A stretch of DNA of 64,000 nt, taken from the IMG/VR virus record IMGVR_UViG_3300046170_000148, positions 1-64,000 of that record. The stretch is one strand, 5' to 3'. Under the pieces are notes generated by a model. It was not told where the DNA came from and made no database searches. It saw nothing but the letters and a program-made list of their open reading frames with translations. The stretch is from a virus. Of this stretch, positions 20,180 to 34,518 are shown piece by piece. Each line of letters starts with the position of its first letter. Positions within the stretch are counted from its first letter, which is position 1. Made by a program: the position numbers and the translations under genes.

Positions 20180-20545
20180 TTACTTTGTTACAGATGGTGA
20201 AACTTCGATTTGACCTTCAAGTATTCTCTCAATGATAGTGTTTGAGTCACTATCAGTATAAGATAACTCAACATCATAAACATACCGACCTCTCGTTGTG
20301 AGTGTATCGGTTTGAGTGTTCGTTAGAGATAGGGTTACAATACCATCGGTAGGTGGTGTTGCAATAACAGAGTTGAACTCTAAGGTGTTTGGGTCATTAG
20401 CCGAGTCAGCATATCTTCTTTTCATTTTTGCCGTGACTGACCTATTTGTCAAATTAAAAGCGCTACCGCTGTCATGAACCAGTTCAACTTCGATGGCGAC
20501 ATCTGTTCCCTGATTAATGACAATATCTTCGTAGTTAGTTGACAT
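20180..20545 (-). CDS. Small virion structural protein (BppU-like fold suspected)
   Basis: 121 residues starting MSTNYEDIVINQGTDVAIE and rich in beta-strand patterns: VELVHDSGSAFNLTNRSVTA, TRGRYVYDVELSYTDSDS, ILEGQIEVSPSVT. Single-domain proteins of this shape lie beside fibre genes in marine T4-like phages and resemble the N-terminal domain of BppU-type baseplate proteins; that link is from pattern only. It ends 6 nt before the giant fibre ATG, so it may be a fibre-attachment or assembly factor. Confidence 0.55.
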   Translation of the reverse strand: MSTNYEDIVINQGTDVAIEVELVHDSGSAFNLTNRSVTAKMKRRYADSANDPNTLEFNSVIATPPTDGIVTLSLTNTQTDTLTTRGRYVYDVELSYTDSDSNTIIERILEGQIEVSPSVTK

Positions 20546-20607: not shown

Positions 20608-21306
20608 CTAGAAATCTGACATTATTTCTTCGATGGTATCTTTTTGTATATCTAATGCCATATCAGACATATCTATTTGGTAGGCAACTGTTAAACGCCA
20701 ACAGTCTGTCTTTGCACTGTGATAACACAACTTATCCCAAGACTCTCCATAATGACCAAAGTATCCTGCTTTACATTGCCATCCAGGCTTATCCTGTAGG
20801 ACAACTTCTTCACCAGTCTTACCATCAACATATGAAAAACTACCTTCACCTGTTTCTGACCAAGTGAAGATAAAATTATACCCAGGCGCATTCGCGTTAT
20901 TGTGCCATGAGATAAAACCGCCTGGCGGATATAATTGAGTCAATGCATTATTCTTCACGAATAGTAGATGTCCAAGACGTTCACTATTCTCACCAGCTCT
21001 TCTCCGAAAATCCACTTCTTCTTGGGGTGTCATTTTTATTGAATGTCTTTGTTGGTCAGTTTTGAGTGGATATCCTAATATCTTTTCTGGATATCCATCA
21101 TGACCTTCGTGTAAACCTATAATATTGTCACGATACTTTTCGTTAGTGTATTTTTCACGAGTTCCATTAGAGTCTTTACCACCATCGAGGTGTAAAACTT
21201 TTTTGACATAATTCGCATTTTCGTAATACCAGAGATAATGATTTAGCGCTTCAAGTATAGTCTGATTCCTAATCGGAATATCAATCATTTGTTTGTGTTC
21301 GGTCAT
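20608..21306 (-). CDS. 2OG-Fe(II) oxygenase-like protein (prolyl 4-hydroxylase type)
   Basis: 232 residues. The C-terminal half has a cupin-like pattern: LTQLYPPGGFISWHNNANAPG, then YNFIFTWSETGEGSFSYVD, then LCYHSAKTDCWRLTVAYQI. The first His (in SWHNN), the later His (CYH) and the Arg eight residues on (CWR) fit the iron and 2-oxoglutarate ligands of this superfamily, although the usual HxD acidic ligand appears as HxN. The start overlaps the upstream glycosyltransferase stop as ATGA. Such genes recur next to tail fibres in marine T4-like phages; the substrate (fibre residues or a glycan) is unknown. Confidence 0.55.
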   Translation of the reverse strand: MTEHKQMIDIPIRNQTILEALNHYLWYYENANYVKKVLHLDGGKDSNGTREKYTNEKYRDNIIGLHEGHDGYPEKILGYPLKTDQQRHSIKMTPQEEVDFRRRAGENSERLGHLLFVKNNALTQLYPPGGFISWHNNANAPGYNFIFTWSETGEGSFSYVDGKTGEEVVLQDKPGWQCKAGYFGHYGESWDKLCYHSAKTDCWRLTVAYQIDMSDMALDIQKDTIEEIMSDF

Positions 21307-22058
21307 ACTATAGGAGTATCTTTCTGCAATGTTGCCGAGAAGTGTCTTAGAATCGGTGGTTTGCCCGACTTAGATTTAAGCATACCTGTCGCCGAATATG
21401 AATATTGACTAAAATAATTCCAACGAATATCATCTTCGAAGATACCAATCTTCAGGTCTTTATATTTGTCTACCTTATTTACCAACCACCAAAGAGTTGT
21501 CTGGTCGAAATGTTGAAGGTCATTCCTCCAAGTTTTTTCTTCAAAACCTTCGGGTCTCCAGTCACCGCTATATTGTTTCAAAAACAATTCATGCCAATCA
21601 TGCATGAATTGTTTGACCAGAGGATTGGAACTACGATATAGACATACACCACCGCAGAGACTATACATCTCTCGTTTTCCTTCATAGTTGAAATATCTGA
21701 CAGCATAAAACTTTTCACGTTCTTTGGTCAACTCATGGAATACCATGTCATAGTCTTTGAGTTCGTCCCAGACTTTGATGATATCTTCATGTTCGCAATC
21801 CATGTCTGCATCAACATACATTGTGACATCATAAGGAGTTTCTGCCATTCCCCACAGTTTTTCGCGATAACCACCACCACAGAGTTTTACATCATCAAAC
21901 ACATCTGTTCGACTATCAATAAAACGTTCTTCTGTGAAAAATGTTATGTTTGCGTCAGGATAAAAATCACGAATCGATTCGGCTAGGTTCACCGCATATA
22001 TGTAGAAGTTTTTATTTTTTGACGCTACAATAACAAAACCCTTAGTTTGATTCTGCAT
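21303..22058 (-). CDS. Nucleotide-sugar glycosyltransferase-like protein
   Basis: About 251 residues from the ATG at 22058 (MQNQTKGFVIVASKNKNFY); a longer version would need a TTG. N-terminal Rossmann-like strand FVIVASKNKNFYIYAVNLAES, then TPYDVTMYVDADMDCEHED, where DAD serves as the metal-binding DxD of GT-A enzymes, followed by the acceptor-side pattern GGVCLYRSS and FDQTTLWWLVNK. It overlaps the preceding gene by 17 nt and the oxygenase by 4 nt, so the three are one unit within the tail region. A role in virion or host-surface glycosylation is inferred. Confidence 0.6.
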   Translation of the reverse strand: MQNQTKGFVIVASKNKNFYIYAVNLAESIRDFYPDANITFFTEERFIDSRTDVFDDVKLCGGGYREKLWGMAETPYDVTMYVDADMDCEHEDIIKVWDELKDYDMVFHELTKEREKFYAVRYFNYEGKREMYSLCGGVCLYRSSNPLVKQFMHDWHELFLKQYSGDWRPEGFEEKTWRNDLQHFDQTTLWWLVNKVDKYKDLKIGIFEDDIRWNYFSQYSYSATGMLKSKSGKPPILRHFSATLQKDTPIV

Positions 22059-22494
22059 TATCAATTACTTCTTTCACAATCATAATAGCATATAGGTTGA
22101 CTTCTGGAATTGATTTTGACCTACGAAGTTTTGATTTTAAAACACGATTCTTAGAGTTTTTAATTTCTTCAATTTCAAAAGTCTCTAACTTATACTTGAA
22201 AAGTTTTTCGAGATTTCTTGCGCGTTCCTCTTCGACTTTTCTTTGTTTCTCGGCGTCAGCCTCGGCCGCCTTGCGTTTCATTCTACGTTCAGTAGACGCT
22301 TCAATTTTTTCTTCGCCTAAGAATTCTACAATTTCAAGGAAAACTTCATTTTCAGTTCCGTCACTGTTAAATTTGTCAACCTTATAGACTTGAGTCTTTT
22401 TCTTTCCATCCTCAAGGTCTTCTTCAGAAATTGCGTTTAGAACATGTTTTCGAGGAGTTTCCCAAAATGCATTATCTAACCATCGTCTAGTCAT
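22042..22494 (-). CDS. Charged coiled-coil hypothetical protein
   Basis: 150 residues from the ATG at 22494 (MTRRWLDNAFWETPRK), chosen over 22500 because GGAG sits 7 nt upstream. The middle (about residues 70-115) is a Lys/Glu/Arg-rich coiled coil (RRMKRKAAEADAEKQRK). No family recognised. It is the first gene after the repeat fibres and overlaps the glycosyltransferase-like gene; a linker or chaperone role would be a guess. Confidence 0.6.
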   Translation of the reverse strand: MTRRWLDNAFWETPRKHVLNAISEEDLEDGKKKTQVYKVDKFNSDGTENEVFLEIVEFLGEEKIEASTERRMKRKAAEADAEKQRKVEEERARNLEKLFKYKLETFEIEEIKNSKNRVLKSKLRRSKSIPEVNLYAIMIVKEVIDNAESN

Positions 22495-22537: not shown

Positions 22538-24496
22538 TTAGGCACACCTCAGATAGAGAGTATATACCTCAATTATGTCCGTGTCAGAACCAATCACATC
22601 CGCGCCTACAAAATTACCAGTAAAGTTACCAGTCACAAAGTCCCTACCATAGTTGCCTGTATAGTTACCAGCGAAATTGCGAGAATAGTTACCCTCAAAG
22701 TTACCAATAAACGTTCTTAAATAGTTGCCAGCATATTCACCAGCGAAGTCTCTACTGTAGTTGCCTGTGTAGTTCCCTGCGAAGTCTCTTGAATAGTTGC
22801 CTGTATAGTTACCAGCAAAGTTTCTGGAATAGTTGCCTGTGTAGTTGCCTGTATAGTTACCAGCGAAGTCTCTACTGTAGTTGCCTGTGAAGTTGCCTGT
22901 GTAGTCACCAGCAAAGTTACGAGAGAAATTGCCAGCAAAATCGCCAGCAAAGTTGCGAGAGTAATTACCAGTAAAACTAGGAGTCGTTGTAGATGTTCTA
23001 GTAGAGTTTGCAGTAGAGTTTCTCGTCGAATTTCGGGTATATGCGGTAACATCGTTTCTAGTAGAAGTTCTCGTTGAAGTTCTTGTAAATGGAGTGCCGA
23101 CATAATATGTCGCGACACCGTAAATAATGTTTCCGTTTGAGAATCGAGCATAACCCCTAGTAAAGTTACCAGCAAAGTTACCAGCAAAGTTACCAACAAA
23201 CGTTCTACTATAATTACCAGTAAAGTCACCAGTAAAGTCACCAGTAAAGTCACCCGTAAAATTATCAGTTCTCGTAGAAGTTCTTGTATATGAGGAAGCT
23301 CTAGTTCTTGTTGAAGTTCTTGTATATGAGGAAGCTCTAGTTCTCGTAGAATTTCTTGTATAATCAGCTGAAAATGCGGAAGTTCTAGTTCTTGTTGAAG
23401 TTCTTGTATAATCAGCTGAATATGCAGAAGTTCTAGTTCTCGTATAATCAGCGGAAAACGAAGAAGTTCTAGTTCTCGTATAATCAGCTGAAAATGCGGA
23501 AGTTCTAGTTCTCGTATAATTGCCTACATACGTCAGGCTTCTATATCCAATGACATCAAATGTATAATTAGAAGTTCTCGTCCTTGTGTAGTCAGCGGAA
23601 TACAAAGAAGTTCTAGTTGTTTGTGATGTTCTAGTCGAGGCTTGAGGAGCAACCGCCCGTCTTGTATCGGTTGCAGTTCCCATTGCTTTCCAAGTTCCCG
23701 TATCAGTCGGTGCGCCTTGAGTCGCACTACGCAACTGATATGCGCCAATACCATTTGTTGTTGCCATCACATTGGACATGACTGCACGACCAAATGTCTC
23801 CCCGATATCAGAGTCATTCATCTCTTGAATGCCTTGAAATGTGCCTGTCAAACCAGAGGCACGTTTCAATGATACTGGACGTGATTGTGTAGGAATAGAT
23901 GCACTATCACCCGATGTCACATAGTTCTTCACATAGAATTTATACGGTGTTTGTGATGACCCAATCGTATCCGCAAAAGCAATTCCATATAGTGTTGTTT
24001 CTGTCTGTGTATACTCTGCGCTCGGTGTAGAACCGCTGAGACCAAGTTTCATAACACCAGCCCATTGATTGTCGGAGTCGAATAGATATTCTTTTAATCT
24101 ACCCGCAATGGTGTCAACTTCGGACGAATCCATTTCAGTTAGTTGGTTAGGTGTTCCCGAAACAAATTCAACAGGATAACGTCTATCAGTTGATAAAACA
24201 GTCTTACCAGTTTTCTGATAGATGGGTGTATTAGTTGTTGTGGGAGAACCAGGCGCTGAACCAGTAGAACCTGTGTAAAAAGTATCAGTGTATGTTCCAA
24301 TAGTATTTGCATTACCAGATGCATCACTGACCGCATATGGAGCTAAACTCAGGTTTGAACCATAATCACCACGGAGGTAGTCTGCAATACGAAGTCCTGC
24401 TTGATATGCAACCCATTCCTCATCAGCAGAATCCATCTGATGAAGATTACCGTCAATCGCACTCGCACTGTCCAGTCTTAATATAGTTGTTCCCAT
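22538..24496 (-). CDS. Tail fibre with tetrapeptide repeats (fibre A)
   Basis: 652 residues. The N-terminal 270 residues (MGTTILRLDSASAIDG; DEEWVAYQAGLRIADYL) resemble the N-terminus of the neighbouring fibre B. From about residue 285 to 630 the chain is nearly all tetrapeptide repeats: first YTRT-RTSA-FSAD units, then aromatic-x-G/R-N/D units such as YTGN, FAGN, YSRN, FTGD. The C-terminus (EVYTLYLRCA) is shared with fibre B. GATAAATA, a late-promoter variant, lies 5 nt before the ATG. A repetitive beta-structured fibre is inferred. Confidence 0.75.
   Translation of the reverse strand: MGTTILRLDSASAIDGNLHQMDSADEEWVAYQAGLRIADYLRGDYGSNLSLAPYAVSDASGNANTIGTYTDTFYTGSTGSAPGSPTTTNTPIYQKTGKTVLSTDRRYPVEFVSGTPNQLTEMDSSEVDTIAGRLKEYLFDSDNQWAGVMKLGLSGSTPSAEYTQTETTLYGIAFADTIGSSQTPYKFYVKNYVTSGDSASIPTQSRPVSLKRASGLTGTFQGIQEMNDSDIGETFGRAVMSNVMATTNGIGAYQLRSATQGAPTDTGTWKAMGTATDTRRAVAPQASTRTSQTTRTSLYSADYTRTRTSNYTFDVIGYRSLTYVGNYTRTRTSAFSADYTRTRTSSFSADYTRTRTSAYSADYTRTSTRTRTSAFSADYTRNSTRTRASSYTRTSTRTRASSYTRTSTRTDNFTGDFTGDFTGDFTGNYSRTFVGNFAGNFAGNFTRGYARFSNGNIIYGVATYYVGTPFTRTSTRTSTRNDVTAYTRNSTRNSTANSTRTSTTTPSFTGNYSRNFAGDFAGNFSRNFAGDYTGNFTGNYSRDFAGNYTGNYTGNYSRNFAGNYTGNYSRDFAGNYTGNYSRDFAGEYAGNYLRTFIGNFEGNYSRNFAGNYTGNYGRDFVTGNFTGNFVGADVIGSDTDIIEVYTLYLRCA
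22600..23520 (-). repeat. In-frame 12-nt repeat array encoding tetrapeptides
   Basis: The DNA repeats with a 12-nt period (for example four consecutive GGTGACTTTACT-type units near 23220-23265) and a 36-nt higher-order period encoding YTRTRTSAFSAD. The array lies wholly inside fibre A and keeps its frame. Similar arrays occur in fibre B at ~24560-24690, ~25130-25480 and ~25900-26130. Confidence 0.85.
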
Positions 24497-24504
24497 AACG
24501 GTAT

Positions 24505-27500
24505 TTATCCAACTTTTACATAGAGTGTATAAGTCTGAATTGTCGTGTTGGTTGTCCCGATTGCCTCACCAGTATAGTCACCTGTAAAGTTTCTGGAATA
24601 GTTACCAATGAAATTACGAGAGAAGTTACCAGTATAGTCACCCGTATAGTTACCAGTAAAGGTGCGAGAGAAGTTTTCACCAGCTAAATATTCTGATGTT
24701 CTTGTTCTACCGTAGTCAGCAGAAAAGTTACTACTTCGAGTTGCCAAAGACGTTAATACCGATGACCTTGTTGAAGTTCTAATATAAGCTCCATCGAAGT
24801 TGGCTGAACCATAGTTACCAGCATAATTCCCCGTATAAGTTCCAGCTTTTACTATCCGATAATATTTTTTACCAGACACATCGGTTGTGATTAACGAACC
24901 TCTCATAAATGTGTTATAGTTGTAAGTTGGTTGATTCTCTTGTAAGGTGTTATAGGCAATGCCCGCCGAGTAGAGTGTTGTTATGCTATTATAGTTGCTG
25001 GTGTTATATCCCAGAAACTGGCCATCCCACACAACTTGAATTTTATCGTAAAAGGCATTCGGGTCAACCGCCCAATAGAATTGGCCAGGCGGGCCCTAAC
25101 GGGTTGTTTCCATAGGCACTACCCGAACTTATAGTCGAATTCCTCAGGTAGTTGCCGATATAACCGCCTGTATAAGTGCCTATATAGTCACCTGTAAAGT
25201 TACCAGTATAGTTACCCGTATAGTTACCCTCAAAGTTTCTACTATAATCACCTGTATAGTTACCAGTAAAGTCTCTACTGAAAGACGCTGGGCGAGTTCT
25301 GCTGAAATTTCTTGAATAGTTTCCTACAAAATTTCTACTGAAACTGCGTGTATAGTCACCAATATACTGGTAAATTACATCCTGTAATGAAGTTCTTGTG
25401 GAGGTTCTAGTTGAATCTCCAGTAGAAGTAGTAGTGGAGGTTCTGGTTGAATCTCTGGTAAATGAAGAAGTTCTAGTTCTCGTTGATGTTGTGGTATAGT
25501 TACCTGTGTAACTGGCGGTCTGTGTGCCAGCCAATTTAACTCTGTAGTAAATGTAAGCAGGCCCTGTCGCTGAATTTAGGTTACTTAACTTGAATGAATC
25601 GCCCGAAGAGAAAGAAAACTCTTGACCAGTAGACGAATAAAATGTTCCACTCGAAGATGTGCCATGACTTATCGATTCTGGGTCGCCTTGTCCGCCACTA
25701 GAGACCGACATCTGAACTCCATCGACCCATATTTCAAAGTTTACATATGATGGGCCACTCATTCCACCATATACTTGCGCCCCTAGCGATAGCGGTTTCT
25801 GCTTCGGTTTTGTAATTCCAAATACTGTCATCACTCGCAAAACCCTGTGATGGAATGGCGGATACTGGGTCGGTTTCGGATACAGTTGATGTTCTCAAAA
25901 AGTCACCAACAAAGTTACCTGCGAAGTTCCGAGCAAAGTTGCCCTCAAAGTTACCTGTGAAGTTCTGAACAAAATTACCCTCAAAGTTACCAGCGTAATT
26001 ACCCAAGAACGAGCGAGTAAAAGTTGAGAAGCGGTTTCTGGTATAATTTGAAATATATTCAGAACTTCGTGTCCTATCAAACTCACCAGTATAATTACCA
26101 ATAAAACCAACAGAATAGTTACTAGTTCGAGTTCTATCATATGTTTCAGAGAAGACCGTAGTATATTCCGATGTTCTTAGGTTTGTGTATGTTGATACAC
26201 GGGTTCTTGTATAGTTTGTGTCAACAATTGATTTTCTTGTATCTGTTGCAGTTCCTTTAGTAATCCAGTTACCCGTATAACCCTGAGTGGTTGGATTACC
26301 TTCAGTGGCAGAAAAAATCTTAATTGAACCAATCGCATCAGAATCAGATGAAATATGGTTGCGAGCTCGCGTCCCAATCGTTTCGTCTAATTTATCAGAG
26401 TCAGCAATTTGAAAACCCTGAAAGTCATTCTTAAATATAAGACTAATTTCGTCTGCGGAGTCAGCGCCGATAGGTTGATATGAACCTCCACTTTTATGAA
26501 ACGGGCCAAACTCACCACCAATTCTACCATTCCAAACAGAAACTGCACTTAACCCTTGAAGGATTTCCCTTGTTGCACTATCTGGTATCGGTTGTTCTGC
26601 GGCAGTAGTCGAAGAAGTAGCTCGGGAACGAAGAAAGTTTACGCCTGGTCGAAGGAATACTTCAGTCGCAAGGTTAGTGCTTTCGATTGTATCTTCTGTA
26701 GGAAATAACTTAGTTGTATTGCCAGAACTAGGAAAACTGGTTGTCCCCATGGCATAAACTTGAAATTCTGTATCACTATCAAAATTAAATTGTATAGTCC
26801 ACTTACCATCACTCTCAACATGTTTTTGCATTAATGCATTTGTAGCAGCGTGAGTCGCACGAGAAGAACCAAATCTTGCAGAGTCCGCTAGGTCTATACG
26901 ACCTTTGATGCCGACCCACTTTTGTGGTAGTGAACCAATTCTATCACCAAGTGTATCACCTACACTATCTTTATGAACATGAAAAGTAGAACTAGTTGAA
27001 AGTTTACTATTGTTATATTCCGCGCCAGTCGCATCGACGCCATGAACTCGTGGAGCGGTTAAGTATGACGTTTTTTGTTTTCCCTTTATTGAGAAACGAG
27101 TATAACCTTCACCATTGATAGTTGTATCGCTAAATGTGTTCTTATATCTACCCCATATTGTATCATTCCATTCAGCGCTCAAACCAATGTCAAGATACGA
27201 TGACCCAGCAACCCAACCCGAATCAGTTTGTAAATTTGTAAGAGAAAAACCGACTCTGTTAGTTGTAGATTTTGGATATATTGTGCTTGGTGTAGGGGGA
27301 AATCTTCTACCACTAGTTTTTGGTAAATCACTGTCTCGACCCACAAATTGAAGTTCCCCATCAATTCTTACTTCTGCGCTATCAGGGTTATATTTCATAG
27401 TGAATGGTTTTGCACTGTCAGAAGGAACACCAATACCAGTCATATCAATCTTTTGAAAGATACTATATGATATATCACTATCCGTGGCAGAGTCCGTTGT

Positions 27501-28043
27501 TCTTGTATCTGAGAAGAAATTTGGTAGGATGTTTGACCATCCACCATTCGCAGAATCAAAGTCTGTTACTTCTGACGCAAGACGAACAGAACCCGCATAG
27601 TCGTATTTGTAGATGCGAGAAACAATTTCGTTGTTTACAACGTTCCAATCACTGTCAGAGAAAGCTACAAGTTTCTGTTGTGATGCACTATCAGTTTGAT
27701 AAAAAAGATTCGCATAGTTTGAATCATTGTATGTTTCTAATGAACCCTCACCATCTGTTCCGACATTTCGGTAGATATTACTACTAATTGAAGTGACAGA
27801 TAGAAGTGACGTGTCACCACCAGTTCCTGTTGCGGAATCGTATACTGTATTGGTCAGAGTTCCTACATCAAAGACGTTCCGTCCTCCAGCGTGGAATCTT
27901 GTAAGAGCAACTATATCAGAACTATCAGATTGTCTGAGTTGTAGTCCAGCTCGGTATGCTAAGAAATCGTAATCATCACTATCGAAGCTTTGAAGTCCAG
28001 CACTATCCTTTAGTTTTAGTGGAACGCTAACGCCCATTTTCAC
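24505..28043 (-). CDS. Tail fibre with tetrapeptide repeats (fibre B, ~1178 aa), frame interrupted at two places
   Basis: Three frames (25734-28043, 25064-25840, 24505-25032) fuse when one base is removed from the GGGG at 25780-25783 and from GGGCCC at 25091-25096. The joins read TAIARGAQVYGGMSGP and NNPLGPPGQFYWAVDPN, both natural. The N-terminus (MKMGVSVPLKLKDSAGLQSF; DYDFLAYRAGLQLRQSD) parallels fibre A. Three patches of tetrapeptide repeats (YTGN, FEGN, YSRN, FTGD, TRTS) alternate with unique Ser/Asp-rich domains, and the end is QTYTLYVKVG. Probably a tandem-duplicate fibre of A with additional receptor or attachment domains. Confidence 0.75.
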
Positions 28044-28048
28044 TGTCC

Positions 28049-29162
28049 TTAATTTAGTTGTGTGCCAGTTTCATCATAGATTTTTGGTGTATCTGCCCTT
28101 AGTGCGTTAAGTGCGTTTACAACTGTAATTCTTTCATTACCAACAAATCCATCAGAATCCAACAATCTTAGACTACCGATTGTATTGCTATTTAGACTTG
28201 AACTTGAGTCCAATAAAGCAAGGTCTTGTGATAATGAGTTGATTGCAGTTGTAAGGTTTGTTTTATCATCAATATCTGCATCAAATGAAAGGCTACCCAG
28301 TGCGCTATCTAATTTTTCGAATGACCCAAAGATATTATCTGCGACTAGGTGATTGTTGTTGCCGTTAGAATCAATTGCGATGTCTGCGAACAATTCGTTA
28401 ACTGCACCCGCGATAGTCTGTGCAGTGGTGTTGAGTGATGCGCTACCGATTTCAGCGTCAAGTTCATTAATACCGCCAACGACTGTCTGTGCGGTAGTTG
28501 TGAGTGATGCACTACCAATCTCTGCATCAAGTTCGTTTACTGCATCGGATAATGTGGTTGCAGTAGTCGTTAATGCTTGAGCAGGTTCAACCTTTGTGTT
28601 GAGTGTATCAATCTCTGCTTTCCAGTTCTGCAATCGCACCACTTACCGTAGAGGCAGTAGTTCCCATTGCACCCGCAGTGATTGTTCCCAGTTCTGCGTC
28701 CAGTTCGTTGATTGCTTCCTTTACCTCACCCGCAGATGTGGTAAGTGCAGCATCACCGATTGAATCGTGAAGTTCGTTGATTGCTTCCTTGACTTCTTTA
28801 TTGAGTGTCGTAAGTGTTGCGTCACCCAAAGAGTCATGGAGTTCGTTAATCGCACCCGTAAGAGTTTTTGCAAGGGTAGTGAGTGTTGTGTGCGGTCTTG
28901 CACCAATATCACTGTCGAGTTCTACTATAGCAGCCGTTAAGTCAGTCGCAGTCAGACCACCCGATGCTAGGTCAGTAGCAACGAGGTTATTAGAAGTTCC
29001 TCTAACAGCAACTTCTAATTCGTTGATTGCAGCGACAGCGCTTGAATCTTCATTTGTGTTCAATCGTCCTGTCGCACCCAAATCTAAAGAGATGGTATTG
29101 ACACCATCTACCAATTGACTAAAGGTATCTGTAATCAGTGTTTGGGTCGGTTTATTTGTCAT
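28049..29162 (-). CDS. Repetitive coiled-coil tail protein (INELDAEIG repeats), frame interrupted once
   Basis: Two frames (28608-29162 and 28049-28642) join into 370 residues if one base is removed from the AAA at 28619-28621, giving IAELEAEIDTLNTK. The protein repeats the motif AINELDAELG / GGINELDAEIGSAS about eight times at roughly 30-residue spacing, separated by LTTTAQTV-type linkers, a pattern of trimeric fibre shafts or bridging proteins. The C-terminus KIYDETGTQLN resembles the giant fibre end. It overlaps the preceding 69-residue gene at 29162. Confidence 0.7.
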
Positions 29163-29371
29163 TACAGTTTCTCTACTAATTTAGTGAGGAGTTCTTTTAT
29201 TTCACCAACTTCATTCTTTAATTCTTGGAACTCCACATCCTTTTGTTTTCTTTTTTTCTTTGCTTCGCGGGCTTTGGATATCTCTTCCTTATTTATATTA
29301 ACGATTCCCCCTGTTTCTGGGTCTCTTGCGAGACTGGAGTTGCCGTCAACTATAATATATTCTTTCTTCAT
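29162..29371 (-). CDS. Small coiled-coil protein
   Basis: 69 residues: MKKEYIIVDGNSSLARDPETG followed by a basic helix (AREAKKKRKQKD) and a leucine-patterned coiled coil ending ELLTKLVEKL. It overlaps the stop of the DUF4815-type gene upstream (29371) and the start of the next gene (29162). Small proteins of this design accompany tail genes in marine T4-like phages; function unknown. A TATAAATA at 29290-29297 lies inside it and may serve the downstream fibre genes. Confidence 0.65.
   Translation of the reverse strand: MKKEYIIVDGNSSLARDPETGGIVNINKEEISKAREAKKKRKQKDVEFQELKNEVGEIKELLTKLVEKL
29290..29297 (-). promoter_or_regulatory. Possible internal late promoter
   Basis: TATAAATA on the minus strand within the 69-residue gene, ~128 nt upstream of the next start (29162). 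The motif sits in coding sequence, so it may be coincidental. Confidence 0.4.
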
Positions 29372-32300
29372 TATACTGCCAGTGCGATGCCTCTCAAGTC
29401 TTTTACTACAGGTGGTTTAGATTGATTGCTTGTCGTAAATACAAGTTTCAATTGATATTGGGTGAATGAGTTTACATCACCACCGTCACCACCAATCAGA
29501 TAACGATACTCACGGAAGTTATTTTCGTCTGGAGCAATCGTTGTTTCTGATGACTGAAGTGTCCAGTCCACATCAAAGATACTGTCACCATCGTTTGCGA
29601 CTCTGTAATACAATTCAAGTTCTGCACCACTTGGTCTAATAGCAGAAAGAATAACTTTCAGACCGACAGCATCTTCCTCAAGAGTCTGAACTGAAGTGTG
29701 GTGTTTCGATAGTGAAGAACCACCAACAGCATCTGTCTCAGGAGCATATGACAACGGAACATTGAATCCAGTCGCAGAACTAGAGGCTTGTCTGTCAATA
29801 AGATTTGTGGTAGTTGTCAATGATGTTCTCTGTGCATCAATCATTGGTGACACATCTGAACGAGACGTTCCCAAGTCTACCTTGAAGGTAACTGAACGTT
29901 CTCCATTGAGTTGAGTCACGCCTGATTCGTTTGCAGCCTTGGCAATCAATCGAGGTCTTGGGAATAGATTTTCGTCACCAATCTGAATATCACCTGAGTA
30001 ATTTGGGTCTTTCTGATAACGAGTTTCTGACCCTGCCAGAGAACTACCTGTAGTGAACTTAACACCATATGAGAGGGTTGTATCATCTGGAAGAATAGTT
30101 GAGAAGTTCGGAATCGCAACATCGAAGTTGAGTTGTTGGTCTACAACAATTTCGCTACCGCCGAAACGACCGGCAGATGTTGATACACTGTCGGCTTCAA
30201 ACCTCAGACCAAACCCATCTACCGCAGCTACGGGTTTTTCACCCATAATAGATGAACCAAGAATACCGTTATATCTCGTTGCGGAGTCCAGTCCAGTAAT
30301 ATTAATTGTATCAGTATCACTGTAACCGTGATTCGGGAACAACATAGTAACTGTCGCATCTCCACTGTCCGTGAAGAAAGGATTGTCTTCAAGAATTTCA
30401 TCAGGAACATCTGCGTTTTCAAATACCGCATACCCACCAGCAGTATTGAAGTCTGCTTGATAGATTTTGAATGCAAGGTCTTTTGTTTGGTCAGGTGTCC
30501 AAGTTGAACCGTTTTGTGATTTGAACAATGAACCCAGTGAAGGTTGACGGTTCACACGTTTCTCAGTTGAACCCAACTCAAACGCATAGGTCTCTGCGAC
30601 ATATGCTTCATAGTCTTTCGACTCTGCCAGTAGAACGATTGCATATTCTGTATTCGGATTGAGGAATACTGGTTCGTCAAACTCAAAGGTTGTAGGTGCA
30701 GCAATGGCGGCCGCTTGTGTCTGTGACCCAGCAAGACTCACTTCCGATGGAGTCAAGAACTTGATTGCATTCGAGATGATGTCGGTTGCGGATGGTTGAC
30801 CATTTACAACAGGACGAATCTGCATCTCAACAGGTATCTTCGAATCTTTTGCTTTGAAGAACACATCGACTTTGGTTACGAACATACCCGATGGTTTGGT
30901 CACACGGAAGGTCTGTGCGAGTGGGTCACGTCTGGTAACCTCTGTCCAACGCCTTCTACGAACCTGAGTGATACGAGTAGATGTAATTGTTTGTTGTCTT
31001 GTGTCCAAAGTTCCTTGTGATATGTAGTTTGCAGCTGCTCTAGACAGTGCATTGGCATCATTGTTTACACTAACATCTAAGAGTTTAAACTCTCTTGTGC
31101 CACCACGGAATCTGAAATCAGTTTTAGATGGTAAGAAGAACGAACCTTCAATCACACCATCACTGTTAGATTCTAAATCGGTTGAACCTTGTGGGTGTGC
31201 AGAACTATTACGATATCTGTTACCATAAGATAGACTACTACCTGAAGCATATCTAGAGAATGTTTCCTCTCGACAATATGCACTCACATCTCTTCCATCA
31301 AAGAATGGGAAGTAACGAGTGTTTGGACGCATACCTTCTGCACGGAACATAATCTTACGAGACCGCATGAATGGCAGGAATGTCAGAGAGACAGTTCTGT
31401 CACCTGTTACCTTACGAACAGTTCTTGTTCCAACAACAACTCTTTGTTCAAAAGTTGTTTGTTGCCATCTTCGACTTAAACGTCTCGTTCCTGTTCTACG
31501 AACACCATTACTATTCCATGTAGAAACGCCTGACCAACCACCAAATAGGTTAAATCCTCTAAAGATGCCAAAACCAAAGATAGGGGCGCGCCAGAACGGA
31601 GTCCATCTCCATTGATTGAAACCACGTCTTCTTGCCGTGCCTGCTCTCAGTCTACCCTGATTTATAGTTCCGAGGTCTTCCTCAGCTGTTCTGTTAATAA
31701 CATTTGCAGGAATATATTTGGTCTGAACCCACTCATCAGAAGCAGGAGAAAGTGTAACACTACCCTCACCAGTAATAACTGCGAATGGGTTTACGTTTTC
31801 GAAACCAGAGATTGTTGTCTGAGAAATCGCAACACTTTCTGTGTAATTCAGATAAACATTGTCACCCTTCAGAATTGTGTTGTTTGATTTTGAATGGTCA
31901 TAAACAAGAGCGATATTATTGTCATCTGTTTGACAACTCAGAACACCTAATGATGGGTCAATTGCAGCCCGTTGTTCTTCGTTTTCTGTATCTGTGAATG
32001 AACGGTCAGCAAAGTTGTCTACAAAGAAACCTGATTTACTGCGTGGGTTACCCGCAGAGTCGAGAACCAACAATGAAGATGTGTCAACCTCGAGCAGAGA
32101 CAATGAAGTCACCTCTTCTAGTTTATCGACACGTTTCTCTAGATTGTTGATGTCTGCCATCGTAAATCTTTTTGCTTCAAGTGGAGTTGTGTTGACATCT
32201 GAGTCACTCAGACCATATGCATTATGTTCCAACAAGAAGAGACCTAAAGTGTTCTCTGGTGTATCTGGGAACTGGGCATCAAACCCTGCTTCACCAGTAA

Positions 32301-34518
32301 TATTTTTTACTGTTCCATCGGTTGAAATGACAATCTTATCTCTGCGTGGTTGGTAATATGTTACATCACCCTGAAAGATATCACCATTAGTAGGAACTTC
32401 ATTTACTCGTGCATCTGTTCCAGTAAATGTTCCAGCGGAATCAACCACTGAACGGAAATCAATTACATCACGCAGATTAAGTGAGGAACGAGGCCCAGTT
32501 GAAAACTCTGGAATACTCTCATAGTTAACCTGACCAGTATATGATGTGACATCAAAGAAGTCACCACCACCGTGGGTGAAGTGTTTGAACCTACAGAAAA
32601 TTGCACCCGATGGTGCAGAAGCGTTAGTTTCTAGAACCAATCGACCATTACCATAAAAGCCTGGACGTTGACCTTTATCTACAGTAAACAAATATGAGAG
32701 GTCTACACCGTCAGAGTCGGTTTGTTTGATTGATATTACATCGTAGATATCTGCTGCATGAAGGTCAACAAACTTGAGACCACTACCATCAGACTCGACT
32801 CCAGTGTTATTGTAAGTCGTTTCGACAAGTGTTTTCTGACGAGAAGATGCCTGCGCTTTATTAACCTTCGCATAGATTGTAACTGCTTGACTAGTAGGAA
32901 GATTCGTGATTTCGGCTGATAGTAAGTTCGGCGGTGTTATTGTGATAGTCGCGCCAGTAACAACCGCGCCAGTATCGTCTCTTGTTACAATCCACTGATT
33001 TTTATTTACAAGTTTCTCACCAGCCGCGTTAACAGAAATAGTAACACTACCTGAACCATTTGATGTATCAGTAAACTGTCTCTGAACCTCAAAGTCAACA
33101 TCAGTAATGTCAGACGGTCTTGCATTTGGTAATGGGTAAATTAAATTGGTTAAGTCACCTTCTTTAATAACAGCCTGTCCATTCTCAAGGAGTGGGTTGA
33201 TGCAATCAGTTGAATCTGTTCCGACAGACCTTACTTGACGAAGTGCTGAACCACTATTCATTTTGATATCATACAGATATACACGATGCTGTGAACCATC
33301 TTCTTCTACATAACGAACCTTTGCAGTCCCGATGGTAGAAGTAGAAACACCGTGGTCGGCACCATCTTTAAGATTGACAACCTCTTGAGTGTTTATATTC
33401 AATCCACCCAAAGATGTAGCACTGTCTGTAATGAAATACTGACCATAAGAGATACCAGTAACTTCGTTGGTGAATGTTTCTGTTGTTCTTGGTTTGGCGA
33501 TTGTCAGTTTAGTAGGAACTTCCGATGCACCACGGTAACCGTTAATATATGCGATACCATCAGATACAGATGCAATCAGGTTTGTTCCTGAGTCGGTGAA
33601 GTCTACAGTGAAAGGACTTACGATATAGTTGCCTGACTCTTCACGAGTTCTCTCTGCAAGGACTTCATTGATTTTGTTATAATCTTCTGTTCCCGATACT
33701 TGGTCAAGGATTTGACCGTCAACAATATCACAGTAGTAGACAAAGTTTTCGTCAGCAGCAAGTGCATCTTCTGTTGTCAGAGTAAGTGTGATACGATAAC
33801 GGTCAGCGCCAGGCGAAGACAGGTTCGGTGTCGCACCCTGATTATCATACAATGCAGTATCATCAGCAACAGTAACGATATCTTCGGTGATTTTGAAACC
33901 AATGACTTTACTTGGATTTCTATCATACTTGGAAAGAATGAGTTCCTGTGGTTTGACAAATACAAAGTGGCCACGAACAAAGAAGTCACCCGCAGCACTA
34001 GAAATTTTAGAACCACGACCTACCGCAGGAGCAGCAGACTGAACAGTCAGTGTGTCTGACCCGTTGTTGATGTCCTCACCCGCAGACATACGGATTGGGT
34101 TCGCACTTGATGTGCCTGAAGATGTATCAGTATATTGAACATATAGAGTTGCAGGGTCAGAACCTTCTGCCGCAACAACCTGAAGAACTCTTGCTTTGAC
34201 ACCAGATGTCTGTCCAGTAAACTCTGTTCCAACCAGTGTGGTTGTGTCGGTAGGAAGAGTATTACTAGATGTATTCAGTTTGATGAATTCATAGTTATTG
34301 TTGATTGTCGGCCCGCCTGGATTTACAGAAGCACCATCTTTGAAGATGTTGCGACCAAATCTTCCAATCTCCTCTTGGATGATAGTCTGCATCTGTGTAA
34401 GTTCGCGAGCCTGCAAGGCACGACCACTATTGAAAAGGACGCGATGATAGTTATCACTATCAGTGAAATCGTCTTTGTAGGTCGTGGAGAATGAGTTCTC
34501 TGTAAATGTGTTAGCCAT
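29371..34518 (-). CDS. Large tail/baseplate structural protein with DUF4815-type N-terminus
   Basis: 1715 residues starting MANTFTENSFSTTYKDDF, with the DUF4815 signature VLFNSGRALQARELTQMQTI and RFGRNIFKDGASVNPGG (residues ~28-70). The middle contains a large Arg/Trp-rich region (RRGFNQWRWTPFWRAP) and FMRSRKIMFRAEGMRPNTRY, common to big T4-like marine tail proteins. It lies directly after gp8 and before the fibres, where T4 has its gp9-gp12 baseplate-periphery and fibre genes. Likely a baseplate-to-fibre connector; the DUF assignment is from memory of the family signature. Confidence 0.75.
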   Translation of the reverse strand: MANTFTENSFSTTYKDDFTDSDNYHRVLFNSGRALQARELTQMQTIIQEEIGRFGRNIFKDGASVNPGGPTINNNYEFIKLNTSSNTLPTDTTTLVGTEFTGQTSGVKARVLQVVAAEGSDPATLYVQYTDTSSGTSSANPIRMSAGEDINNGSDTLTVQSAAPAVGRGSKISSAAGDFFVRGHFVFVKPQELILSKYDRNPSKVIGFKITEDIVTVADDTALYDNQGATPNLSSPGADRYRITLTLTTEDALAADENFVYYCDIVDGQILDQVSGTEDYNKINEVLAERTREESGNYIVSPFTVDFTDSGTNLIASVSDGIAYINGYRGASEVPTKLTIAKPRTTETFTNEVTGISYGQYFITDSATSLGGLNINTQEVVNLKDGADHGVSTSTIGTAKVRYVEEDGSQHRVYLYDIKMNSGSALRQVRSVGTDSTDCINPLLENGQAVIKEGDLTNLIYPLPNARPSDITDVDFEVQRQFTDTSNGSGSVTISVNAAGEKLVNKNQWIVTRDDTGAVVTGATITITPPNLLSAEITNLPTSQAVTIYAKVNKAQASSRQKTLVETTYNNTGVESDGSGLKFVDLHAADIYDVISIKQTDSDGVDLSYLFTVDKGQRPGFYGNGRLVLETNASAPSGAIFCRFKHFTHGGGDFFDVTSYTGQVNYESIPEFSTGPRSSLNLRDVIDFRSVVDSAGTFTGTDARVNEVPTNGDIFQGDVTYYQPRRDKIVISTDGTVKNITGEAGFDAQFPDTPENTLGLFLLEHNAYGLSDSDVNTTPLEAKRFTMADINNLEKRVDKLEEVTSLSLLEVDTSSLLVLDSAGNPRSKSGFFVDNFADRSFTDTENEEQRAAIDPSLGVLSCQTDDNNIALVYDHSKSNNTILKGDNVYLNYTESVAISQTTISGFENVNPFAVITGEGSVTLSPASDEWVQTKYIPANVINRTAEEDLGTINQGRLRAGTARRRGFNQWRWTPFWRAPIFGFGIFRGFNLFGGWSGVSTWNSNGVRRTGTRRLSRRWQQTTFEQRVVVGTRTVRKVTGDRTVSLTFLPFMRSRKIMFRAEGMRPNTRYFPFFDGRDVSAYCREETFSRYASGSSLSYGNRYRNSSAHPQGSTDLESNSDGVIEGSFFLPSKTDFRFRGGTREFKLLDVSVNNDANALSRAAANYISQGTLDTRQQTITSTRITQVRRRRWTEVTRRDPLAQTFRVTKPSGMFVTKVDVFFKAKDSKIPVEMQIRPVVNGQPSATDIISNAIKFLTPSEVSLAGSQTQAAAIAAPTTFEFDEPVFLNPNTEYAIVLLAESKDYEAYVAETYAFELGSTEKRVNRQPSLGSLFKSQNGSTWTPDQTKDLAFKIYQADFNTAGGYAVFENADVPDEILEDNPFFTDSGDATVTMLFPNHGYSDTDTINITGLDSATRYNGILGSSIMGEKPVAAVDGFGLRFEADSVSTSAGRFGGSEIVVDQQLNFDVAIPNFSTILPDDTTLSYGVKFTTGSSLAGSETRYQKDPNYSGDIQIGDENLFPRPRLIAKAANESGVTQLNGERSVTFKVDLGTSRSDVSPMIDAQRTSLTTTTNLIDRQASSSATGFNVPLSYAPETDAVGGSSLSKHHTSVQTLEEDAVGLKVILSAIRPSGAELELYYRVANDGDSIFDVDWTLQSSETTIAPDENNFREYRYLIGGDGGDVNSFTQYQLKLVFTTSNQSKPPVVKDLRGIALAV

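What the first reader, a model, noticed from the sequence alone, without database searches (positions are those of the whole stretch)
20608..22494. Glycosyltransferase and 2OG-oxygenase-like pair embedded in the fibre region
A DxD glycosyltransferase and a prolyl-hydroxylase-like protein overlap as one unit with a coiled-coil gene between the repeat fibres and the giant fibre. Hydroxylation followed by glycosylation of Tyr/Asn/Ser-rich fibre repeats would be a new way to modify a virion; the repeats next door are plausible substrates.
Basis: inference. Interest (0 to 1): 0.6.

Follow-up and report, generated by a model that had tools for sequence, protein, structure and literature searches.

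The report
Phage fibre hydroxylase–glycosyltransferase cassette
Uncultured marine viruses of bacteria carry, right behind the gene for a long repetitive tail fibre, a fixed set of genes that looks like a sugar-adding enzyme plus an oxygen-adding enzyme, which probably decorate that fibre before it is built into the virus.

Summary
On the minus strand a coiled-coil gene (CC), a glycosyltransferase (GT) and a 2OG-oxygenase-fold gene (OXY) overlap as one unit between tetrapeptide-repeat fibres and a fibre-assembly gene (LF). AlphaFold2 models (pLDDT 91 and 94) match glycogenin-type GT-A enzymes (VIA Z 17.1) and PHD2/P4H-type oxygenases (Z 11.4). Linkage is complete wherever contigs allow a test: OXY accompanies GT in 62 of 62 and 33 of 33 sources, and of 53 loci found with the fibre head domain alone, 36 carry the cassette, 3 are cut inside it, 14 end too soon and none lacks it. 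Two of three distant CC loci show fibres without repeats and no GT or OXY.

So 'dedicated fibre-modifying enzymes' is supported. 'Prolyl-hydroxylase' is not: the repeats hold under 1% proline, and OXY has an invariant HxN in place of HxD/E (96 of 96). N-x-S/T sequons are not enriched. Hydroxylation before glycosylation is untested.

Functional analogues exist (mimivirus collagen hydroxylase/glucosyltransferase, Skp1 pathway, mycobacteriophage virion glycosylation), so this is a new variant of a known kind. Only one of 50,697 phage records carries it (C48C1, 'hypothetical proteins').

The parts
22538..24496 (-). Repeat tail fibre A (652 aa): conserved head domain, period-4 aromatic repeats of the type [G/R]-[N/D]-[Y/F]-x, conserved end ..YTLY[VL][RK]..
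   Evidence: ORF; 39 in-register tetrads, shuffle maximum 9 of 2000; head domain aligned in 14 loci
24505..28043 (-). Repeat fibre B; split here over three ORFs (24505-25032, 25064-25840, 25734-28043); one 1178-aa ORF in the 99.8% identical contig L004
22042..22500 (-). CC: coiled-coil-like protein (152 aa), first gene of the cassette; possible fibre adaptor or chaperone (inferred from position)
   Evidence: no Pfam or PHROG family below E 0.01
21303..22064 (-). GT: GT-A-fold glycosyltransferase (253 aa), nearest solved fold glycogenin; likely ATG start at 22058
   Evidence: AF2 pLDDT 91.3; Foldseek and VIA; invariant residues
21804..21812 (-). GT metal/nucleotide motif D85-A86-D87
   Evidence: invariant in 37 aligned sequences
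21342..21344 (-). GT H241, candidate third metal ligand (inferred by analogy with GT8 enzymes, recalled)
   Evidence: invariant in 37 aligned sequences
20608..21306 (-). OXY: 2OG-oxygenase-fold protein (232 aa), overlaps GT by 4 bp
   Evidence: AF2 pLDDT 93.5; Foldseek and VIA
20896..20904 (-). OXY metal motif H135-x-N137 (WHNN)
   Evidence: WHxN in 96 of 96 distinct OXY sequences
20719..20721 (-). OXY H196, distal metal-ligand histidine
   Evidence: invariant
20695..20697 (-). OXY R204, candidate 2-oxoglutarate-binding arginine
   Evidence: invariant
20180..20545 (-). LF: homologue of the 'L-shaped tail fiber protein assembly' family; downstream border of the insert
   Evidence: phrog_1084 E 8e-21, phrog_3304 E 1.8e-13; homologues in 54 phage records
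20579..20586 (-). TATAAATA, T4-type late-promoter-like octamer in front of LF
   Evidence: 10 in window against 2.51 expected, 0 of 100 shuffles reach 10; the T4 meaning is recalled
29162..29371 (-). Small virion structural protein; upstream border of the fibre island
   Evidence: phrog_473 E 4.1e-15; the gene at this place next to VrlC in cyano- and pelagimyophages

Best explanation
CC-GT-OXY is a dedicated maturation cassette for the tetrapeptide-repeat tail fibre encoded directly upstream. During late infection the fibre is made in the host cytoplasm, and CC (adaptor or chaperone) helps bring it to the two enzymes. OXY, a PHD/P4H-like oxygenase-fold protein with a non-canonical HxN...H iron site, oxidises residues of the repeats, most plausibly Asn/Asp at tetrad position 2 or the neighbouring Tyr. 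GT, a glycogenin-like GT-A enzyme, transfers a hexose from a UDP-sugar to Tyr/Ser/Thr or to the new hydroxyl. The mature fibre is then assembled with help from LF. Shown here: gene order, overlap, linkage in both directions, folds, invariant active-site residues, repeat anatomy. Inferred: that the fibre is the substrate, the acceptor residue, the order of the steps, the donor sugar and the role of CC. The likely benefit (also inferred) is protection, stiffness or altered adhesion of a long fibre in a part of the genome that evolves quickly.
For: OXY follows GT in 62 of 62 GT-bearing sources (window, L002, L004 and L055 are copies of one phage) and in 33 of 33 more distant loci. CC is present in 60 of the 62 (the other two contigs start at or within 52 bp of GT) and in 33 of 33. 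A repeat-type fibre lies directly upstream in 56 of 60 loci; the other four are cut contigs (L028, L054, L056) and one with a shortened CC whose fibre ORF is seen (L018). In one search it is upstream in 31 of 33 (L148 and L156 are cut). Reciprocal test with the fibre head domain: 36 cassette, 3 cut inside it, 13 ending before it, 1 without an ORF, 0 lacking it (53 loci). Of 80 CC loci, 77 have GT and OXY and 3 are cut. Three distant CC loci have neither GT nor OXY, and the fibre visible in two of them, as in Mosig, has no tetrads. Four of four cyanophage records inspected lack the block, and LF there sits close behind VrlC. Folds. OXY cassette copies form a clade apart from 18 solo copies (100/100), HNN against HTN.
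Against: No modified fibre peptide has been seen and no activity tested. All loci belong to one lineage, so linkage may partly reflect descent; many loci are near-copies, and the tool kept only 80 of 309 GT relatives. The HxN site departs from the canonical triad and could mean a pseudoenzyme. OXY paralogues lie away from fibres, so the family is not fibre-specific as a whole. Two fibres have few tetrads (L046 longest run 3; L058 run 4 with a different repeat) yet keep the cassette. N-x-S/T coupling is absent.
Confidence: 0.57

Rival explanations
1. The GT modifies the host's surface glycan (O-chain) to exclude other phages, as proposed for GT8-type enzymes in the host-recognition island of pelagimyophages; OXY acts in the same host pathway.
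For: PMC7029224 passages interpret GTs of the same island this way; GT8-fold enzymes such as LgtC (rank 4) act on lipopolysaccharide; Mosig carries sugar-nucleotide genes in its island.
Against: GT is tied to one fibre type in both directions and overlaps OXY and CC; a host-glycan enzyme need not follow a particular fibre. No membrane segment (maximum 19-residue hydropathy 0.77).
Confidence: 0.16
2. OXY (and possibly GT) is a catalytically dead or structural protein that acts as a folding chaperone for the fibre.
For: HxN replaces the usual HxD/E in 96 of 96 sequences; genes just downstream of phage fibres are often chaperones (recalled); LF next door is a fibre-assembly family.
Against: Both histidines, the Asn and the Arg are invariant, as are the GT's DxD, H241 and K248, which a dead scaffold would not need; two-histidine AspH with HxG is active (PMC10947486 passages).
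Confidence: 0.12
3. The linkage is inherited only; the enzymes act on another target (other virion proteins, a host protein or a small molecule) and merely travel with the island.
For: All loci belong to one phage lineage; solo OXY copies sit near the replicative helicase and near the tail tube.
Against: The unit stays intact while GT identity to the window falls to 43% and OXY identity within the cassette to 37-40%, and 0 exceptions were found in either direction.
Confidence: 0.15

Closest known systems
Mimivirus collagen lysyl hydroxylase/glucosyltransferase L230 and R699 (PMC9546862, abstract and passages)
   Same: Virus-encoded 2OG hydroxylase and UDP-glucose transferase acting on a repetitive viral protein
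   Different: Giant virus of amoebae; collagen Lys is the acceptor; the phage repeats have no or almost no Lys; here two separate overlapping genes tied to a tail fibre; no sequence match found
Skp1 prolyl-hydroxylation/glycosylation pathway (PMC7864055 abstract; Gat1 6mw5)
   Same: Cytoplasmic PHD-type oxygenase plus GT-A glycosyltransferases on one protein; both folds are among the hits here
   Different: Hydroxyproline acceptor in a eukaryote; the phage repeats are nearly Pro-free
Mycobacteriophage virion glycosyltransferases (Freeman 2023, seen only through passages of PMC12619734 and PMC12363180)
   Same: Phage-encoded enzymes glycosylate virion proteins
   Different: Capsid and tail tube, not tail fibre; no oxygenase partner mentioned in what I read
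Glycogenin (GT8)
   Same: Nearest solved fold (Z 17.1, rmsd 3.6, 199 residues); DxD; self-glucosylates a Tyr (recalled)
   Different: 16-19% identity in the structural alignments; no Glyco_transf_8 profile hit; acceptor here unknown
PHD2 / bacterial prolyl 4-hydroxylase
   Same: Fold (Z 11.4 and 10.7); N137-H196 spacing 59, as D315-H374 in PHD2 (PHD2 numbers recalled)
   Different: HxN instead of HxD; no Pro-rich substrate next door
Pelagimyophage host-recognition island (HTVC008M, Mosig)
   Same: Same genome slot; several 2OG oxygenases and GTs reported in the island
   Different: No GT profile match and no convincing OXY match there; Mosig has a distant CC next to a repeat-less fibre with a sugar epimerase instead

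Membership tests
Fe(II)/2OG-dependent oxygenase superfamily | Double-stranded beta-helix fold | tested here: met
   AF2 pLDDT 93.5; 103 PDB matches at E <= 0.001 with PHD2/AlkB on top; VIA Z up to 11.4
Fe(II)/2OG-dependent oxygenase superfamily | HxD/E...H iron triad | tested here: not met
   HxN...H in 96 of 96 sequences; active exceptions such as AspH (HxG) exist, so the fold is filed, canonical membership is not
Fe(II)/2OG-dependent oxygenase superfamily | Basic residue binding the 2OG C5 carboxylate | tested here: inconclusive
   R204, 8 residues after H196, is invariant; geometry not inspected
Fe(II)/2OG-dependent oxygenase superfamily | Curated sequence profile match | tested here: not met
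   No Pfam family for the window protein; best 2OG hit in 48 members PF13532 E 0.089, 1 member; phrog_61 E 0.0092, 1 member
Prolyl hydroxylase (P4H/PHD) | Hydroxylates Pro in its substrate | not testable with these tools
   Indirectly unlikely: Pro 0.8% of the repeat half of fibre A
GT-A glycosyltransferase | GT-A fold with DxD | tested here: met
CAZy GT8 | Glyco_transf_8 profile match | tested here: not met
   Not among hits at E <= 0.1 for 37 members; weak Glycos_transf_2 in 11 of 37, best E 0.0014
CAZy GT8 | C-terminal H-x-x-G-x-x-K motif (recalled) | tested here: inconclusive
   Consensus RHYSGxLxKD with H241, S243, K248 invariant: similar, with one extra residue
N-glycosylation by sequon (N-x-S/T) | Enriched N-x-S/T in the repeats | tested here: not met
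   S/T at position 4 in 35% of N tetrads and 38% of D tetrads (9,845 tetrads, 127 ORFs)

The most novel reading that the evidence does not exclude
A bacteriophage analogue of collagen hydroxylysine glycosylation: a two-histidine-plus-asparagine oxygenase and a glycogenin-like transferase act one after the other on a long fibre built of G-N-Y-x / R-D-F-x tetrads, laying a dense, regularly spaced layer of hydroxyl and hexose groups (about one site per four or eight residues) along the tail fibre. The Tyr of G-tetrads (Tyr 68%, against 16% in R-tetrads) would be the sugar acceptor.
Probability: 0.27. Interest if true: 0.82.

Novelty: new variant of a known kind. Interest (0 to 1): 0.57.

Why it matters
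If true, phages have a hydroxylase-plus-glycosyltransferase maturation step for adhesion fibres, so far known from collagen and mimivirus. It would give a function to some of the many 2OG oxygenases in marine T4-like phages, offer an oxygenase family with an unusual iron site, and add fibre glycosylation to the factors of host recognition. It is directly testable by mass spectrometry or by co-expression in E. coli. Even if the substrate is different, the absence of exceptions to the fibre-enzyme linkage tells annotators that these 'hypothetical proteins' form one module.

Tried and rejected
N-glycosylation sequons: the G-N-Y-T repeats look like N-x-T, but N and D tetrads have S/T at the same rate, so rejected. 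Hydroxyproline or hydroxylysine: repeats too poor in Pro and Lys. Ordinary profile annotation: Pfam, PHROGs and PDB sequence searches gave nothing for OXY and only weak hits for GT. The VIA and Foldseek lists showed no mycobacteriophage virion GT by name; that excludes nothing. Genome collection scan for OXY: 4 loci, all in MAG contigs, two on one 142-kb contig, possibly binned phage; not followed. Paper searches found no phage fibre hydroxylase/GT cassette: all in an open-access library without most subscription journals and without preprints of bioRxiv; C48C1 is in no held paper. HxN 2OG enzymes: one search found no paper with 'HXN motif' among those listed.

Alignments A1 and A2 (with C48C1) served the profile and PDB searches; A4 and A5 (without it; A4 also without the own-genome paralogue) served the structure predictions. 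Identical sequences were dropped before counting distinct ones.

Full report
What is there. The window is part of a 144,192-bp virus record. Its tail sheath is nearest to Phage C48C1 (66% over 46% of the protein) and then to the SAR11 myophages HTVC008M and Mosig (about 50%). On the minus strand the order is: position-equivalent of VrlC (29371-34518), small structural gene (phrog_473), two short fibre-like genes, repeat fibre B, repeat fibre A (22538-24496), CC, GT, OXY, LF, giant fibre. GT and OXY overlap by four bases.

The fibre. Fibre A has a head domain, a repeat half and a conserved end (..YTLY..). The repeats place Tyr or Phe at every fourth residue: 39 in-register tetrads against at most 9 in 2000 shuffles. 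Over 127 distinct ORFs and 9,845 tetrads, position 1 is G (59%) or R (21%) and position 2 is N (46%) or D (21%). G-tetrads carry Tyr in 68% and R-tetrads in 16%. N-x-S/T coupling is absent. The repeat half of fibre A is 0.8% Pro with no Lys.

The enzymes. AlphaFold2 with 46 and 36 sequences gave confident models. OXY: Foldseek PHD2/AlkB, E 2.7e-5, with low global TM-scores (about 0.3-0.46); VIA PHD2 Z 11.4, rmsd 3.8, 152 residues, P. putida P4H Z 10.7, Dictyostelium PHD Z 10.7. GT: Foldseek UGGT, LgtC and glycogenin at E about 1e-7; VIA glycogenin Z 17.1, rmsd 3.6, 199 residues, the Skp1 galactosyltransferase Gat1 Z 15.2, GT6 enzymes up to 14.9. Viral structure library: GT-A proteins of uncultured phages and giant viruses, best E 1.7e-9. 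Invariant residues include the GT's D85, D87, H241 and K248 and OXY's H135, N137, H196 and R204. OXY has WHxN in 96 of 96 distinct sequences. The canonical Asp/Glu is thus replaced throughout. Human AspH works with HxG and only two His ligands (PMC10947486, passages), so activity is not excluded.

Linkage, forward. 51 GT loci and 26 OXY loci were fetched from viral contigs, plus C48C1. GT was found in 62 sources including the window and copies of it; OXY is in all 62. CC and LF are each in 60 of 62. CC is missing from L054 and L056, where GT starts at or within 52 bp of the contig end; LF is missing from L045 and L062, which end before it. In 33 further, more distant loci, GT, CC and OXY are in 33 of 33, LF in 30 of 33 (the others end before it), fibre upstream in 31 of 33. 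Of 309 relatives the tool kept 80. In L043 GT and OXY are 209 bp apart.

Linkage, reverse. With the fibre head domain as query (53 loci): 36 cassette, 3 cut inside it, 13 ending before it, 1 without an ORF, 0 lacking it. With CC as query, of 80 loci 77 have GT and OXY and 3 are cut. Two of the 77 show few tetrads upstream: L295 (the L046 contig, with GTYT-type repeats) and L278, where the ORFs read near CC look like repeats in another frame. Many contigs recur between these sets, so the numbers must not be added. Three distant CC loci and pelagiphage Mosig have no GT or OXY; their fibre, visible in Mosig and two of the three, lacks tetrads, and a sugar epimerase sits between fibre and CC (Pfam, Mosig copy).

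Placement. LF has homologues in 54 phage records, mainly cyanophages. In the four inspected (P-HM1, S-SRM01, ACG-2014f, MED4-213) LF lies close behind VrlC and the small structural gene, with no GT, OXY, CC or tetrad fibre detected. The fibre-CC-GT-OXY block is therefore an insertion at the variable host-recognition slot described for pelagimyophages (PMC7029224, passages), where the authors read GTs as O-chain modifiers. That is the main published rival.

OXY relatives. The own genome has a second OXY at 112431-113036, beside ORFs that I read as ThyX and a replicative helicase. C48C1 has one between DnaB helicase and a NifU-like gene and one between tail tube and UvsY. In a 96-row tree the cassette copies separate from 18 solo copies with 100/100 support (HNN against HTN); the long-branched tail-tube copy of C48C1 joins the cassette side with unsure placement, and L043 was labelled solo only because of its gap.

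Reading. The simplest account of strict two-way linkage inside an island that otherwise varies is that the enzymes serve the fibre. I put this at 0.57. The acceptor residue, sugar, order of steps and the role of CC are inference.

Novelty. Virus-encoded hydroxylase plus glucosyltransferase on a repeat protein (mimivirus), cytoplasmic hydroxylation plus glycosylation (Skp1) and phage-encoded virion glycosylation (mycobacteriophages) are known. A tail-fibre cassette combining both, with an HxN oxygenase, was not found in my paper searches. I rate it a new variant of a known kind.

Noticed in passing
24505-28043: Fibre B is split over three ORFs in the window but is one 1178-aa ORF in a 99.8% identical contig (L004); sequencing or assembly error in the repeats is likely, phase-variable slippage is possible.
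   Followed up: partly
L003 1441-2103 (own genome C1:112431-113036): A second OXY-family protein (HTN motif) lies next to ORFs that look like ThyX and a replicative helicase; C48C1 has a copy beside its DnaB helicase too, plus a third near the tail tube.
   Followed up: partly
2600, 7322, 20579, 29290, 36960, 40698, 48352 (-) and 48845, 56959, 58775 (+): TATAAATA, the T4-type late-promoter octamer, occurs 10 times against 2.5 expected (0 of 100 shuffles reach 10); one copy precedes LF.
   Followed up: no
L230 40293-43404 (Pelagibacter phage Mosig), L311, L312: Pelagiphage-type loci pair a repeat-less fibre with an NAD-dependent sugar epimerase and a distant CC homologue, hinting that sugar genes occupy this fibre slot more widely.
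   Followed up: partly
L221, L224 (contig JAAXIF010000028.1): A 142-kb contig in a Sphingobacteriales MAG holds two OXY-family genes and may be a binned phage genome.
   Followed up: no
L229 37443-39682 (HTVC008M): Four consecutive genes annotated as 2OG-Fe(II) oxygenases lie between the fibres and the neck genes; the OXY profile does not match them convincingly (best E 0.0014 in a small set).
   Followed up: partly
L278, upstream of CC: The fibre next to this cassette appears to be read out of frame near CC, suggesting a frameshift in the repeats.
   Followed up: no
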